Origin: Lithacetigena sp037446255 [NCBI: Coprothermobacterota bacterium]
GTDB taxonomy: Bacteria > Coprothermobacterota > HKB111
Assembly (NCBI GenBank): GCA_037446255.1
Contig: JBBIIY010000011.1
Span: forward strand, 1 to 40,380
DNA: 40,380 nt
Direction of reading: 5' to 3'
Of this stretch, positions 18,983 through 22,759 are shown piece by piece. Position 1 is the first letter of the stretch; the number at the start of each line of letters is the position of its first letter. A program made the position numbers and the translations under genes. The notes below the pieces were generated by a model. It was not told where the DNA came from, ran no database searches, and was given only the letters and a program-made list of their open reading frames with translations.

Positions 18983-19759
18983 CTATACGTTAAGTAACTC
19001 TTTTTTAATCTTACTTAATGCCCGTCTTTGCAGCCTTGAAACCTGTACCTGGGAAACTCCTAATTTTTTGGCAATGTCGGCTTGTGGAAGGTGGTCATAA
19101 AATCTCCACTTAATAACCTGTCTCTCGTTACCGGGAAGCTTCTCTATAGCAGTTTTTAAAAATAACCTTTCATCTTCATTTTCCTTATCATAGGAATTGA
19201 ATGAAGCTATTTCGTTTAATGGTCTTGACTTTTCATCGTCATCATTAAAGGCAGTATCAAGAGAAAGAGCATCATAAGATGCTCCGGCTGACATCGCTTC
19301 CATTGCCTCTTCTTCCGTAATCCCAAGTTCATGAGCAATTTCGCTATACTTGGGAGTTCTTCCTAACTCTTGAGATAACCGGTCCGCAGATTTTTGTATT
19401 TTTAACCCTAACTCTTGTAATCTTCTCGGTACCTTAATATCCCAACTGCTATCCCTGAGATATCTTTTCATTTCACCCAGTATGGTAGGAATAGCAAAAG
19501 AAAGAAAATCTTTTTTTAAAGAAGGGTCAAATCTTCTAATTGCTTGAACTAAACCGAGAAAACCAACCTGTTCCAGGTCTTCCTTATTTTTATAAGATTT
19601 GAATTTACGAGCTAAATAATAAACAATTCCTGCGTAATGACGTATTAAGTCCTCAAGTTTACTCTCATCTTTTTCATTTTTATAGTTGAGTAAAAGTCTT
19701 TCTATATGTTCTTTACTTTTTTGTTCTACCTCACCTGGAAGAAGCAGCATATTTAACAA
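18983..19759 (-). CDS. RNA polymerase sigma factor of the SigB/SigF/SigG family
   Basis: 258-residue group 3 sigma factor. Region 2 is LIRHYAGIVYYLARKF...EDLEQVGFLGLVQAIRRFDP...FLSFAIPTILGEMKRYLRD (about 43-119). Region 3 follows (VPRRLQEL...YSEIAHELGITEEE), and region 4 is LPGNERQVIKWRFYDHLPQ plus the helix-turn-helix ADIAKKLGVSQVQVSRLQRRAL. This layout and the adjacent RsbW-like gene place it in the general-stress/sporulation group, but the sequence does not say which. The start may be TTG at 19759 or ATG at 19750. It overlaps the RsbW-like gene by 20-29 bp, so the two are probably coupled. Confidence 0.88.
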   Translation of the reverse strand: MLNMLLLPGEVEQKSKEHIERLLLNYKNEKDESKLEDLIRHYAGIVYYLARKFKSYKNKEDLEQVGFLGLVQAIRRFDPSLKKDFLSFAIPTILGEMKRYLRDSSWDIKVPRRLQELGLKIQKSADRLSQELGRTPKYSEIAHELGITEEEAMEAMSAGASYDALSLDTAFNDDDEKSRPLNEIASFNSYDKENEDERLFLKTAIEKLPGNERQVIKWRFYDHLPQADIAKKLGVSQVQVSRLQRRALSKIKKELLNV

Positions 19760-20099
19760 TTCTTACCAATACCCCCCTTCTGGTATCTGTTTTTTCAACA
19801 TTATCAGCCAAACAACTAAGTAAAATATTGGTAATTTCCTTTTCTAAAAAGCACGAATACCTTCGGGGAATTTCCATCAGCAAGTAAAACACTTCGTCTT
19901 TCATTTCATAGGAGACTCTTATTGTTCCACGTTTTACTTCGTTATCAAGTAAGCAACTCATTACTTCAGCAACAAAAAGTTTTAAATCTTCAACCTCCTC
20001 AAAACCAAGACCAGCTTGAGTGGCTGCACCAGAAACAAACAACCTGAATTGGGTCAAAAATGATTCTTCCAGGGGAAGTATCAAAAAAGCCTTACTCAC
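19731..20099 (-). CDS. Degenerate RsbW/SpoIIAB-like protein (HATPase_c_2 fold, probable anti-sigma partner)
   Basis: 122-residue protein upstream of, and overlapping, the sigma gene. The segments FLTQFRLFVSGAATQAGLGFEEVEDLKLFVAEVM resemble the N-terminal half of SpoIIAB/RsbW. The N-box (ExxxN) reads EVMSC: the Mg-binding Asn is replaced by Cys, and no DxGxG or GxG lid motif can be recognised further on. It is therefore doubtful that it binds ATP or is a kinase. A sigma-binding role is inferred from position and fold similarity only. The start is GTG, overlapping the ytxH stop as GTGA. Confidence 0.6.
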   Translation of the reverse strand: MSKAFLILPLEESFLTQFRLFVSGAATQAGLGFEEVEDLKLFVAEVMSCLLDNEVKRGTIRVSYEMKDEVFYLLMEIPRRYSCFLEKEITNILLSCLADNVEKTDTRRGVLVRIVKYAASSR

Positions 20100-20330: not shown

Positions 20331-20657
20331 TTAACCTCCTTTCTTTTTAAGAATTGAAGATGTTTTTTTGCTTATATCCACTATCATTTTAATAGTGCTC
20401 AAAAAAGATAAAGCACCAGTAATCTGAGGCAATAGATGGGTAGAAACTTTTACTTTATTCAATATTACCCTGGAATCTCGTAAAAGTCCTTTCCCCTCTC
20501 GGATTATCTCCTTACCTTCATTTTCTACAAAGTAGTTCAATTCTTTACTGATTTTATCCATCTTATTTACCAATAATTTAGTACTCACTAGAAAAACGAT
20601 CAGCGTAATCCACAGGGGAAATCCTATAAAAACAATTAATACCCAGTTATCTACCAT
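20331..20657 (-). CDS. DUF948-like (YtxG-type) membrane protein
   Basis: 108 residues with an N-terminal membrane segment (about 5-28) followed by an amphipathic helical region with LVNKMDKISKELN and an ENEGKEIIREGKGLLRDS stretch, as in DUF948 proteins. No catalytic motif is visible. It overlaps the end of rseC by 11 bp and is followed four bases later by ytxH. The assignment rests on the pattern and on the DUF948-YtxH pairing. Confidence 0.65.
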   Translation of the reverse strand: MVDNWVLIVFIGFPLWITLIVFLVSTKLLVNKMDKISKELNYFVENEGKEIIREGKGLLRDSRVILNKVKVSTHLLPQITGALSFLSTIKMIVDISKKTSSILKKKGG

Positions 20658-21072
20658 TACTAAAACCTCCTTTCCTTAACTCTATCACTTTAGGTTTAAA
20701 GGAAATGAATTTTCTTAAAAAATAAACACAACTTATACCTATTATAAAACCAATTGTTCCACCAAGCAAGTAGCCATAATTGGTATGGCTATGCAAAATA
20801 CCTCCGATTACCACTCCTGTAATTAAAGCTGTAGTGGGCATTAAAAAAACAATAGTAGATAACATAAATACAGATTGGTCAGGAATATCTACAACCGCCA
20901 TATCGCCTACAGAAGCTTTTTCCAGTAAATCATCAGGCAGATTGGCTTTCAAATTGGGTGTTCTTCTACTACAACCCCATCCACAACTCTCGCAATTTGA
21001 AGATTCCCCGGGAAAGCATTTTACCTCTACTTCTTTATTGTTAATAGAAACTACTTGTCCATGTCTATACAT
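20647..21072 (-). CDS. RseC/MucC-family membrane protein
   Basis: 141 residues. The N-terminal 60-residue cytoplasmic part has a cysteine cluster (Cys27, Cys30, Cys34 in NCESCGWGCS) typical of RseC, followed by two membrane segments (about 68-90 and 96-116). RseC modulates the RseA/sigma-E pathway in enterobacteria and is linked to Rnf-type electron transfer and SoxR reduction; here its target is unknown. It heads a five-gene overlapping run ending in a sigma factor. No Shine-Dalgarno is seen before its ATG. The predicted structured RNA ends 20 bases upstream. Confidence 0.85.
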   Translation of the reverse strand: MYRHGQVVSINNKEVEVKCFPGESSNCESCGWGCSRRTPNLKANLPDDLLEKASVGDMAVVDIPDQSVFMLSTIVFLMPTTALITGVVIGGILHSHTNYGYLLGGTIGFIIGISCVYFLRKFISFKPKVIELRKGGFSNGR

Positions 21073-21092
21073 TATTAATATGAATAAAGTTA

Positions 21093-21225
21093 CCCGCCGT
21101 GCCGTTTGGCTTGAACATTACAAACCTGTGCCAAAAAGTGGTATCCATTAGAGCGTTTCTGCTGGATCCTATATGTCTGTGTTAGGTTGTATGTCTTGCC
21201 TTAACACGCACACGGCAGGATTCCT
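21093..21225 (-). ncRNA. Predicted structured RNA / leader upstream of rseC
   Basis: From an apparent start near 21225 the minus strand can fold into a closed multi-branch structure. P1 pairs 21219-21211 (CCTGCCGTG) with 21101-21093, 9 bp with one G-U. P2 is GTGTTAaGG (21207-21199) with CCTAACAC (21186-21179). P3 is GGATCCA (21169-21163) with TGGATaCC (21147-21140). P5 is GGTTTG (21126-21121) with CAAGCC (21113-21108), also with a G-U and a 7-base loop. Both G-U pairs become A-C mismatches on the plus strand, so the minus strand is favoured. No U-run terminator follows; the RNA may read into rseC as a leader. It matches no riboswitch I recognise. The closing stem and the last hairpin faintly recall 6S RNA, but it is about 50 bases too short. 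Confidence 0.45.
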
Positions 21226-21231
21226 TAAAGC

Positions 21232-21240
21232 ATTATAGCA
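21232..21240 (-). promoter_or_regulatory. Extended -10 promoter for the structured RNA and rseC operon
   Basis: Minus-strand TGCTATAAT is an exact extended -10 (TGnTATAAT). It predicts a start at 21225-21226, five or six bases before the first paired base of the predicted RNA. No -35 match is found at 16-18 bp. Confidence 0.55.
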
Positions 21241-21373
21241 CATTTCAAGATTGCCAGGATAATTAAGTAATGGAGAAAATAATTTTCCTACTCTCTATTA
21301 CCGTTCTTATCCCTATAAGGGGTATATACTGTACTTAAGGTTTACTTGACGGTTGAGGGTACAGATCTTTTGG
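21241..21373. other. Gene-free stretch between rhomboid gene and rseC promoter
   Basis: With 21073-21240 this makes a 301-bp gap. The part here contains a weak hairpin at the rhomboid stop (GGGTA/TACCC arms, no U-run) and a small CCC-TTATA-GGG hairpin around 21309-21319. No strong intrinsic terminator, conserved operator or open reading frame is seen. Confidence 0.5.
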
Positions 21374-22012
21374 TTACCCCTTTTTAGAATATTTTATTAG
21401 TGAAGCCCAGATATATCCAACTACAAATCCTCCCACATGTGCCCACCAGGCAACACCTCCCTCTGAAACTACACCCAGGCTGGAAAATCCATAGATTAAT
21501 TGAATAATAAACCATATACCCAAATATATATAAGCTGGTAAAGCCACTACCGTAATAAACAGACCAAGTGGTACTAAAGTAAGGATTTTAGCCCTGGGGT
21601 AAAGCACAAAGTACGAGCCTATAACTCCTGAAATAGCACCACTGGCTCCAATGAGTGGCAGGTTGGAGTTCAAGTCTAAAACCGCATGCAATAAAGTTGC
21701 TGTTACCCCAGCGGTTAAATACATAATAATATAGTTTAAATGCCCTAATCTGTCTTCTACATTATCTCCAAAAATCCAGAGAAAAAGCATATTTCCCAGG
21801 AGATGCATGAAACCCCCATGGATGAACATAGCGCTAAATATGTTAGGTAGGGAAATATTTGAAGGGATAAATCCATACTCCATTATGAAAGCCATATACC
21901 CTTTGGAAGAAAGAGAAAGCATAAAAAGATAAACAGCAATGTTTGCAAGTATCAGAGAAATATTAAAAATACAAAATGATTTTGCTAATATATTATCTTT
22001 TAATGGAATCAT
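21374..22012 (-). CDS. Rhomboid-family intramembrane serine protease
   Basis: 212-residue membrane protein with six predicted transmembrane segments. The catalytic dyad is visible as Ser124 in GASGAISG and His192 in AHVGGFVVG; the conserved FIHGGFMHLLGNMLFLWIFGDN block (64-85) supplies the oxyanion-side His65/His70/Asn74. Rhomboids cut substrates within the membrane; this one's substrate is unknown. The ATG abuts the rlmB TAG directly. Last gene of the clpC-to-rhomboid run. Confidence 0.92.
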   Translation of the reverse strand: MIPLKDNILAKSFCIFNISLILANIAVYLFMLSLSSKGYMAFIMEYGFIPSNISLPNIFSAMFIHGGFMHLLGNMLFLWIFGDNVEDRLGHLNYIIMYLTAGVTATLLHAVLDLNSNLPLIGASGAISGVIGSYFVLYPRAKILTLVPLGLFITVVALPAYIYLGIWFIIQLIYGFSSLGVVSEGGVAWWAHVGGFVVGYIWASLIKYSKKG

Positions 22013-22759
22013 CTATTGGTAAAATCTTTGCTTTACAGCTTCGAATAAAACAACTGCCGTAGCTACCGATACATTCAAACTGGTTACTCTCCCCAGCATA
22101 GGAATCTTTACCAGAAAATCACATTCTTTAACAATATTATCTCTAAGCCCTTTACCTTCACTACCTACTACCAGGACTAAAGGCATCTTTAAATCTACTT
22201 CAAAATATTCCTTATCACTTTTCATATGTGCGCCTATAATCCAGAAACCTTTCTCTTTAAAAACTTTTAAAGATGCCAGAAGATTTTTTACTCTGACAAT
22301 TTTTAAGTGGAACACAGCACCTGAGGAAGCTTTGGCTACTATCCCGGTTATGGGTGCAGTTCTCCTCTCACACATAATAACACCACTTACCCCGGCACCT
22401 TCAGCAGAACGCATAATCGCACCCAAATTATAAGGGTCCACTATTTCATCCAGTGCCAGAATTATAGGATAGGAGCACTTTATAGATTCAAGCAAAATTT
22501 CCTCTATATTGGAAAAAGGAAAAGTTGAGGTTATAGCAATAATTCCCTGATGATGTCTTGAACCGCAGGTATAGGTAAGTGTATCTTCACTTACTCTTCT
22601 TACAGGGAGGTTATGAGCTTTTATCTCTTTTACAAGGTTATCGTTAAAATACTTACTAAGGTAAACTTCCTCAATAAATTTACCAGCTTTAAGAGCTTCG
22701 CTTACTACTCTTTTACCGAATATTATTTCTCTTTGTATTTCGGTAGAATCTTGTTCCAT
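22013..22759 (-). CDS. rlmB: 23S rRNA 2'-O-methyltransferase RlmB / TrmH-family SPOUT methyltransferase
   Basis: 248 residues: an N-terminal L30e-like substrate-binding domain (about 12-75), then the knotted SPOUT domain. Motif 1 is DPYNLGAIMRSAEGAG, motif 2 VLVVGSEGKGLRD, motif 3 MLGRVTSLNVSVATAVVLFE. It probably methylates ribose 2'-OH of 23S rRNA (Gm2251 in E. coli); the exact target is inferred from family and from its usual place after cysS. The start ATG lies 47 bp inside cysS, which is a long overlap, with AGGA eight bases before it. No later ATG precedes the conserved domain. Confidence 0.88.
   Translation of the reverse strand: MEQDSTEIQREIIFGKRVVSEALKAGKFIEEVYLSKYFNDNLVKEIKAHNLPVRRVSEDTLTYTCGSRHHQGIIAITSTFPFSNIEEILLESIKCSYPIILALDEIVDPYNLGAIMRSAEGAGVSGVIMCERRTAPITGIVAKASSGAVFHLKIVRVKNLLASLKVFKEKGFWIIGAHMKSDKEYFEVDLKMPLVLVVGSEGKGLRDNIVKECDFLVKIPMLGRVTSLNVSVATAVVLFEAVKQRFYQ

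What the first reader, a model, noticed from the sequence alone, without database searches (positions are those of the whole stretch)
21093..21240. Unassigned multi-branch RNA with a strong promoter ahead of the rseC-to-sigma operon
In a 301-bp gene-free gap, an exact extended -10 (TGCTATAAT) points at a sequence that folds into a 9-bp closing stem enclosing at least three hairpins. Two of the pairs are G-U on the minus strand and A-C mismatches on the plus strand, which gives a strand direction. The RNA ends 20 bases before rseC, whose ATG lacks a ribosome binding site. A leader RNA controlling a stress/sigma operon, or an independent small RNA such as a shortened 6S relative, are both possible; neither is a class I recognise.
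Basis: partly seen in the sequence, partly recalled or inferred. Interest (0 to 1): 0.62.

Follow-up and report, generated by a model that had tools for sequence, protein, structure and literature searches.

The report
A short, divergent 6S RNA gene
This is most likely the gene for 6S RNA, a widespread bacterial RNA that mimics a promoter and holds RNA polymerase, here in a short form that default annotation misses; apart from that it is ordinary.

Summary
It is best read as a 6S (SsrS) RNA on the minus strand, about 21224-21087. A permissive Rfam scan matches RF00013 end to end (39.5 bits, E 1.1e-6 in 421 bases), under the 46.4-bit gathering score, so the default scan misses it. The window is close to Ca. 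Lithacetigenota (alaS 84-86% identical). In that phylum set 7 of 9 genomes match 6S, 4 above the gathering score. A model built from five of them finds only this place in the window at E<=1. 8 of 8 copies have an exact TGNTATAAT 7-12 nt before the closing stem and an invariant AACA at the predicted product-RNA start. One inner stem changed sequence between two clades but pairs within each. The predicted fold is a rod, not three hairpins. The RNA is not tied to rseC: five of the eight genomes have no rseC match, and a DUF948-like gene follows the RNA there. It is short (138 nt; median of 52 matches 182). Transcription and polymerase binding are inferred.

The parts
21231..21240 (-). Extended -10 promoter element TGCTATAATG; predicted transcription start about 21225-21224 (inference)
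   Evidence: Exact match; exact TGNTATAAT ending 7-12 nt before the closing stem in 8 of 8 copies. Best -35: 3-4 of 6 matches in window, G001, G002 and G007; TTGAGA (5 of 6) in G003-G006 at spacing 15-16.
21087..21224 (-). 6S RNA, 138 nt
   Evidence: RF00013 end to end, 39.5 bits, E 1.1e-6; model R1 from five relatives, 27.7 bits, E 2.6e-5, only place in the window at E<=1.
21206..21219 (-). Closing stem, 5' arm
   Evidence: Pairs with 21093-21105, probability 0.87-1.0; almost invariant in 8 of 8.
21093..21105 (-). Closing stem, 3' arm
   Evidence: As above.
21184..21200 (-). Inner closing helices, 5' arm
   Evidence: Pairs with 21108-21127, probability 0.33-1.0; arm-swap test.
21108..21127 (-). 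Inner closing helices, 3' arm; could refold on its own into the hairpin GGUUUG/CAAGCC, a candidate release hairpin (inference)
   Evidence: the hairpin appears in the forced three-hairpin fold.
21170..21183 (-). Central bubble, 5' strand
   Evidence: Between inner helix and apical stem; the minimum-energy fold puts four pairs (21176-21179 with 21132-21135, probability 0.89-0.98) inside it.
21128..21139 (-). Central bubble, 3' strand
   Evidence: see the caveat on four predicted pairs.
21181..21200 (+). Predicted product RNA (pRNA) GUUAGGUUGUAUGUCUUGCC, made on the 6S RNA as template (inference)
   Evidence: Template start C at 21181 inside AACA, invariant in 8 of 8; GG at positions 5/6, as described for pRNAs in PMC8414754 (passages).
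21140..21169 (-). Apical (terminal) stem-loop, shortened
   Evidence: Pair probabilities 0.91-1.0; 15 alignment columns shorter here than in G003.
20647..21072 (-). rseC-like gene, next downstream; possibly read through from the 6S promoter (inference)
   Evidence: PF04246 E 1.3e-15; no terminator-like site found in 20600-22100.
20331..20657 (-). DUF948-like gene; its relatives follow the RNA directly in the other clade
   Evidence: phmmer E 4.6e-7 to 2e-5 with the genes after 6S in G003, G004, G005 and G007. Those of G003 and G007 match PF06103 at E 8.4e-4 and 5.2e-4, under its cut-off; the window's own copy has no Pfam match at E<=0.001.

Best explanation
Minus strand 21224-21087 encodes a 6S RNA of a Ca. 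Lithacetigenota-like bacterium. It would be transcribed from its own extended -10 promoter and fold into a rod with a central bubble that imitates an open promoter. By analogy with characterised 6S RNAs, it binds housekeeping RNA polymerase holoenzyme when growth stops. When nucleotides return, the polymerase copies a short pRNA from the bubble, predicted to start at 21181 with GUUAGG, and the RNA refolds and lets go. Transcription may run on into rseC and the DUF948-like gene, as E. coli ssrS is transcribed together with ygfA. Supported by computation: family, strand, promoter-like site, fold, conservation. Inferred: transcription, polymerase binding, pRNA synthesis, read-through.
For: RF00013 end to end, E 1.1e-6. 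7 of 9 genomes of the phylum set match at E<=0.001, 4 above the gathering score. Model R1, built only from the five other-clade sequences, finds the window locus and both close relatives and nothing else in 59,380 bases at E<=1. Exact TGNTATAAT in 8 of 8. Closing stem almost invariant. Arms of one inner stem pair within clades (mean -5.1 and -7.7 kcal/mol) and poorly across clades (-0.9, -2.7). Invariant AACA at the pRNA start, with GG at pRNA position 4/5 or 5/6 in 7 of 8, as reported for known pRNAs (PMC8414754, passages). The same DUF948-like gene lies downstream in both clades. Of the 14 control genomes 5 match and 4 of these pass the cut-off; by comparison the one that does not pass is Lactococcus lactis, for which a 6S RNA is described (PMC8414754). 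I did not check that its match is that gene.
Against: Below Rfam's gathering score by 6.9 bits. 138 nt is shorter than the 160-200 nt given for 6S RNA (PMC8414754). The minimum-energy fold puts four pairs inside the bubble. G002 lacks the GG in its predicted pRNA. 2 of 9 genomes of the phylum set gave no match even at E<=10, none to the closing-stem pattern with one mismatch, and their DUF948-like genes have no 6S match nearby. R1 over G001, G002, G008 and G009 through the genome search was empty although R1 matches loci of G001 and G002, so it says nothing. Much of the R1 match is the closing stem; in G002 the model skips most of the middle. The automatic consensus of all eight is not a clean rod and has a small covariation term (-1.84), and within the window's clade it is +0.12 with 1 of 42 pairs changed on both sides. 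In the arm-swap test the apical stem shows no such effect for the window's clade (-7.9 within, -6.3 and -8.1 across), and over the wider inner region G002's 5' arm pairs with three other-clade 3' arms as well as with its own (-11.2 against -11.1).
Confidence: 0.92

Rival explanations
1. A cis-acting leader RNA of the downstream rseC / DUF948-like genes, not a 6S RNA.
For: About 15-20 nt separate it from the next gene in the window and in G003; no terminator-like site in the window between RNA and rseC; a DUF948-like gene lies downstream in both clades.
Against: Full-length 6S match, with 4 relatives above the gathering score; rseC had no match at E<=0.001 in the five genomes of the other clade; no 6S match beside the DUF948-like genes of G008 and G009.
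Confidence: 0.05
2. An Ms1-type RNA: a 6S-like rod that binds core RNA polymerase without sigma factor.
For: Ms1 is structurally related to 6S RNA (PMC9130861, start of abstract and passages).
Against: The Rfam scan of the gap listed 6S and two chance-level families up to E 10, no Ms1; I did not check that Rfam holds an Ms1 family. Ms1 is reported from Actinobacteria. A pRNA-like start is conserved here.
Confidence: 0.02
3. A structured stretch of no function, or a decaying 6S pseudogene.
For: The gap also holds the broken 3' end of a protease gene; the RNA is short and low-scoring.
Against: 138- and 140-nt forms in two further genomes at 91% and 88% identity with stem and -10 intact.
Confidence: 0.01

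Closest known systems
6S / SsrS RNA (Rfam RF00013), including E. coli ssrS and B. subtilis 6S-1
   Same: Rod with closing stem, central bubble and apical stem; own promoter-like site; pRNA-like start; end-to-end model match.
   Different: 138 nt against 160-200 nt; apical stem shortened; below the gathering score; followed by rseC and a DUF948-like gene, not ygfA as in E. coli (PMC2848244, passages) nor between rarA and uspA as in lactic acid bacteria (PMC8414754, passages).
6S RNAs of the other clade of the phylum set (G003-G007)
   Same: Same closing stem, exact extended -10, AACA site and DUF948-like downstream gene.
   Different: 152-157 nt, longer apical stem, a small hairpin in the 3' strand of the bubble; 4 of 5 above the gathering score; ABC transporter permease gene upstream; no rseC match.
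Ms1 RNA of Actinobacteria
   Same: 6S-like shape (PMC9130861).
   Different: Ms1 binds core polymerase; no Ms1 match was listed here.

Membership tests
6S RNA (RF00013) | Match to the family model over its whole length | tested here: met
   Model positions 1-187 of 187, 39.5 bits, E 1.1e-6. The curators' gathering score (46.4), a curation threshold and no biological feature, is NOT reached by the window copy; 4 of 9 genomes of the phylum set reach it.
6S RNA (RF00013) | Rod: closing stem, large central bubble, apical stem | tested here: met
   Caveat: four pairs are predicted inside the bubble.
6S RNA (RF00013) | Base pairing conserved despite sequence change | tested here: inconclusive
   For: one inner stem in the arm-swap test; 7 of 33 consensus pairs with two-sided change in 8 sequences. 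Against: the apical stem shows no effect for the window's clade; covariation terms are small. It rests mainly on one split between clades; no R-scape.
6S RNA (RF00013) | pRNA start in the bubble (adenine beside the start, GG at pRNA 4/5 or 5/6) | tested here: met
   Adenine 8 of 8, GG 7 of 8 (rule from PMC8414754, passages). I chose the start after seeing the alignment, so this is a fit and not a blind prediction.
6S RNA (RF00013) | Typical, not defining: length of 160-200 nt | tested here: not met
   138 nt. Matches under 160 nt above the gathering score: G003, G004, G005, G006 and, outside the phylum set, G087 (150) and G046 (158).
6S RNA (RF00013) | Binds housekeeping RNA polymerase holoenzyme and templates pRNA | not testable with these tools
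   Needs RNA-seq or in vitro binding and transcription.
Cis-acting leader of rseC | RNA found with rseC across relatives | tested here: not met
   Five genomes carry the RNA without an rseC match at E<=0.001; a DUF948-like gene follows instead. A very divergent rseC could be missed.
Ms1 RNA | Binds core polymerase without sigma factor | not testable with these tools
   No Ms1 entry among matches up to E 10.

The most novel reading that the evidence does not exclude
In this lineage the 6S RNA heads a transcript that continues through rseC and a DUF948-like membrane protein towards an anti-sigma-like gene and a sigma factor, so that making the sponge for housekeeping polymerase is coupled to making an alternative sigma factor; and the RNA has been pared down towards the smallest size that still works as a promoter mimic.
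Probability: 0.15. Interest if true: 0.5.

Novelty: new member of a known kind. Interest (0 to 1): 0.25.

Why it matters
It extends 6S RNA to a candidate phylum from serpentinite-hosted systems; a full-text search for '6S RNA' with 'Lithacetigenota' found no paper in the held library. It ties with G001 for the shortest of the 6S matches seen here, useful for asking how little structure a promoter mimic needs. It also shows a practical blind spot: likely 6S copies can fall under Rfam's default cut-off, and relatives that pass it settle the case.

Tried and rejected
Riboswitch or other Rfam class: at gathering level only four tRNAs in the window; at E<=10 the gap gave 6S and two chance-level matches (ctRNA_pND324 E 8.4, DUF805b E 1.9).

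Three-hairpin fold: 4.1 kcal/mol worse than the rod. Its first hairpin appears as an inverted repeat, but the 5' arm is not kept in the other clade. I keep it only as a possible alternative conformer.

6S in G008 and G009: none by RF00013 at E<=10, by closing-stem pattern with one mismatch (which finds the 6S of both positive genomes given, G003 and G004), or beside their DUF948-like genes. In G009 the stretch just upstream of that gene reads as coding; aspS-like is from memory and by eye.

DUF948-like, rseC or rhomboid genes beside 6S in 30 loci outside the phylum set: no phmmer hit at E<=1 among 360 ORFs, repeated with a positive control that worked. Flanks are about 1.5 kb at most and some contigs end sooner; 30 of the 52 matches were looked at.

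DNA search over 98 genomes: 47 of 98 gave a match at E<=1, but only G001 (query 1-148) and G002 (1-156) match nearly or fully end to end; the rest are short.

Papers: '6S RNA' with 'Lithacetigenota' 0, with 'DUF948' 0, with 'rseC' 2, seen only in the listing. PMC9751293 (phylum description): passages only, '6S RNA' 0 occurrences in the main text. PMC4227106 (Aquificales 6S): passages only, not used as evidence. No paper was read whole.

Full report
The gap. Window 21073-21373 is a 301-bp gap between rseC (20647-21072, PF04246 E 1.3e-15) and a rhomboid gene (21374-22012, PF01694), both on the minus strand. The minus strand carries TGCTATAATG at 21240-21231 and, 7 nt after the TATAAT, a stretch that folds more stably than its shuffles (21240-21085: -48.7 kcal/mol, z -3.57, 0 of 200 shuffles as low; plus strand z -1.51, 15 of 200).

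What it is. Rfam at gathering thresholds reports only four tRNAs in the window. At a permissive threshold the gap matches RF00013, 6S RNA, on the minus strand at 21224-21087 over all 187 model positions with 39.5 bits (gathering 46.4) and E 1.1e-6 for 421 bases. E-values grow with the amount searched: G001 and G002 had E 1.3e-4 and 1e-3 in a 45-kb, all-family scan.

Relatives. alaS from the window is 86% identical to that of Ca. Psychracetigena formicireducens and 84% to that of Ca. Lithacetigena glycinireducens, both phylum Ca. Lithacetigenota; the other 27 loci returned are at 39% or less. Of 9 genomes in the phylum set, 7 match RF00013 at E<=0.001 and 4 exceed the gathering score; G008 and G009 do not match, even at E<=10. 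Of 14 control genomes 5 match and 4 pass the cut-off; comparison shows that the fifth is Lactococcus lactis, for which a 6S RNA is described (PMC8414754, passages), though I did not check that the match is that gene. So the cut-off need not be the border of the family. A covariance model built only from the five other-clade sequences (G003-G007) finds the window locus (27.7 bits, E 2.6e-5), G002 and G001, and nothing else in 59,380 bases at E<=1. Much of that match is the closing stem. The same model run over G001, G002, G008 and G009 through the genome search returned nothing, which is uninformative because it misses G001 and G002.

Anatomy. In 8 of 8 copies an exact TGNTATAAT ends 7-12 nt before CCTGCCGTGT. 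The best -35 is weak (3-4 of 6) in the window, G001, G002 and G007, and TTGAGA in G003-G006 at a spacing of 15-16. The closing stem is almost invariant. One inner stem differs in sequence between the clades; its arms pair within a clade (mean -5.1 and -7.7 kcal/mol) and poorly across clades (-0.9 and -2.7). The wider inner region shows the same on average (-11.1 and -18.2 within, -6.8 and -7.1 across), except that G002's 5' arm pairs with three other-clade 3' arms as well as with its own; the apical stem shows no such effect for the window's clade (-7.9 within; -6.3 and -8.1 across). The automatic consensus of all eight is not a clean rod and its covariation term is small (-1.84); within the window's clade it is +0.12. 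Covariation is therefore supportive, resting mainly on one evolutionary split, and not a formal proof. The window's minimum-energy fold is an unbranched rod, mean pair probability 0.92, with four pairs inside what the 6S model treats as bubble. One of its hairpins, GGUUUG/CAAGCC in the 3' strand, could be a release structure of the kind known for 6S RNAs; this is inference.

Product RNA. Known pRNAs have an adenine beside the start and GG at position 4/5 or 5/6 (PMC8414754, passages). In these 8 sequences AACA is invariant in the bubble's 5' strand. Starting at its C gives GUUAGG... in the window and G001, GUUAAG... in G002, and GUUGGA... in G003-G007: adenine 8 of 8, GG 7 of 8. I chose this start after seeing the alignment.

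Setting. In the five other-clade genomes the gene upstream of the RNA is an ABC transporter permease (phmmer 5 of 5; Pfam for G003 and G007). Downstream is a DUF948-like gene: phmmer relates those of G003, G004, G005 and G007 to the window's 20331-20657 gene (E 4.6e-7 to 2e-5); in G006 the contig ends 114 nt after the RNA, but its downstream DNA encodes the same opening, TNWQVFFIAFPLWVFAV, read by eye. In the window and G002 rseC stands between the RNA and this gene. rseC matched only G001 and G002 among 13 genomes. So the wider association is with the DUF948-like gene, and rseC was seen only in the window's clade. There is no terminator-like site between RNA and rseC, which allows read-through as for E. 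coli ssrS-ygfA (co-transcription stated in PMC2848244, passages).

Size. The 52 matches (from 50 of 96 genomes) have median length 182; the shortest are G001 (138) and G002 (140), and the window copy is 138. PMC8414754 gives 160-200 nt as usual.

Verdict. An ordinary 6S RNA gene in a little-studied phylum, short and under Rfam's default score. Identity is well supported; function is inferred from the family.

Noticed in passing
window 21294-21367, minus strand: The gap holds the last ~26 codons, in two reading frames, of an SDH-type ClpP-like protease gene (PF01972) that is complete between the rhomboid gene and the 6S RNA in G001 (L067:268-1095) and G002 (L068:2322-3146); tblastn finds no other credible piece in the window, so the window's lineage seems to have lost it here.
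   Followed up: partly
L069, L070, L071, L072, L073: In the other clade the 6S RNA begins about 20 nt after an ABC transporter permease gene, so that its -35 region lies in the end of that gene in G003; a DUF948-like gene (followed in G003 by a YtxH-like gene) starts shortly after the RNA.
   Followed up: partly
G008 and G009 (L108, L107): Two genomes of the same phylum set gave no 6S match; their DUF948-like genes sit in other surroundings. True loss, incomplete assembly or a more diverged 6S remain open.
   Followed up: partly
window 19731-20099 and 18983-19759, minus strand: A small protein without a Pfam match overlaps the start of a sigma factor with regions 2, 3 and 4; by eye it looks like an anti-sigma kinase. 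231 bp separate it from the DUF948-like gene.
   Followed up: no
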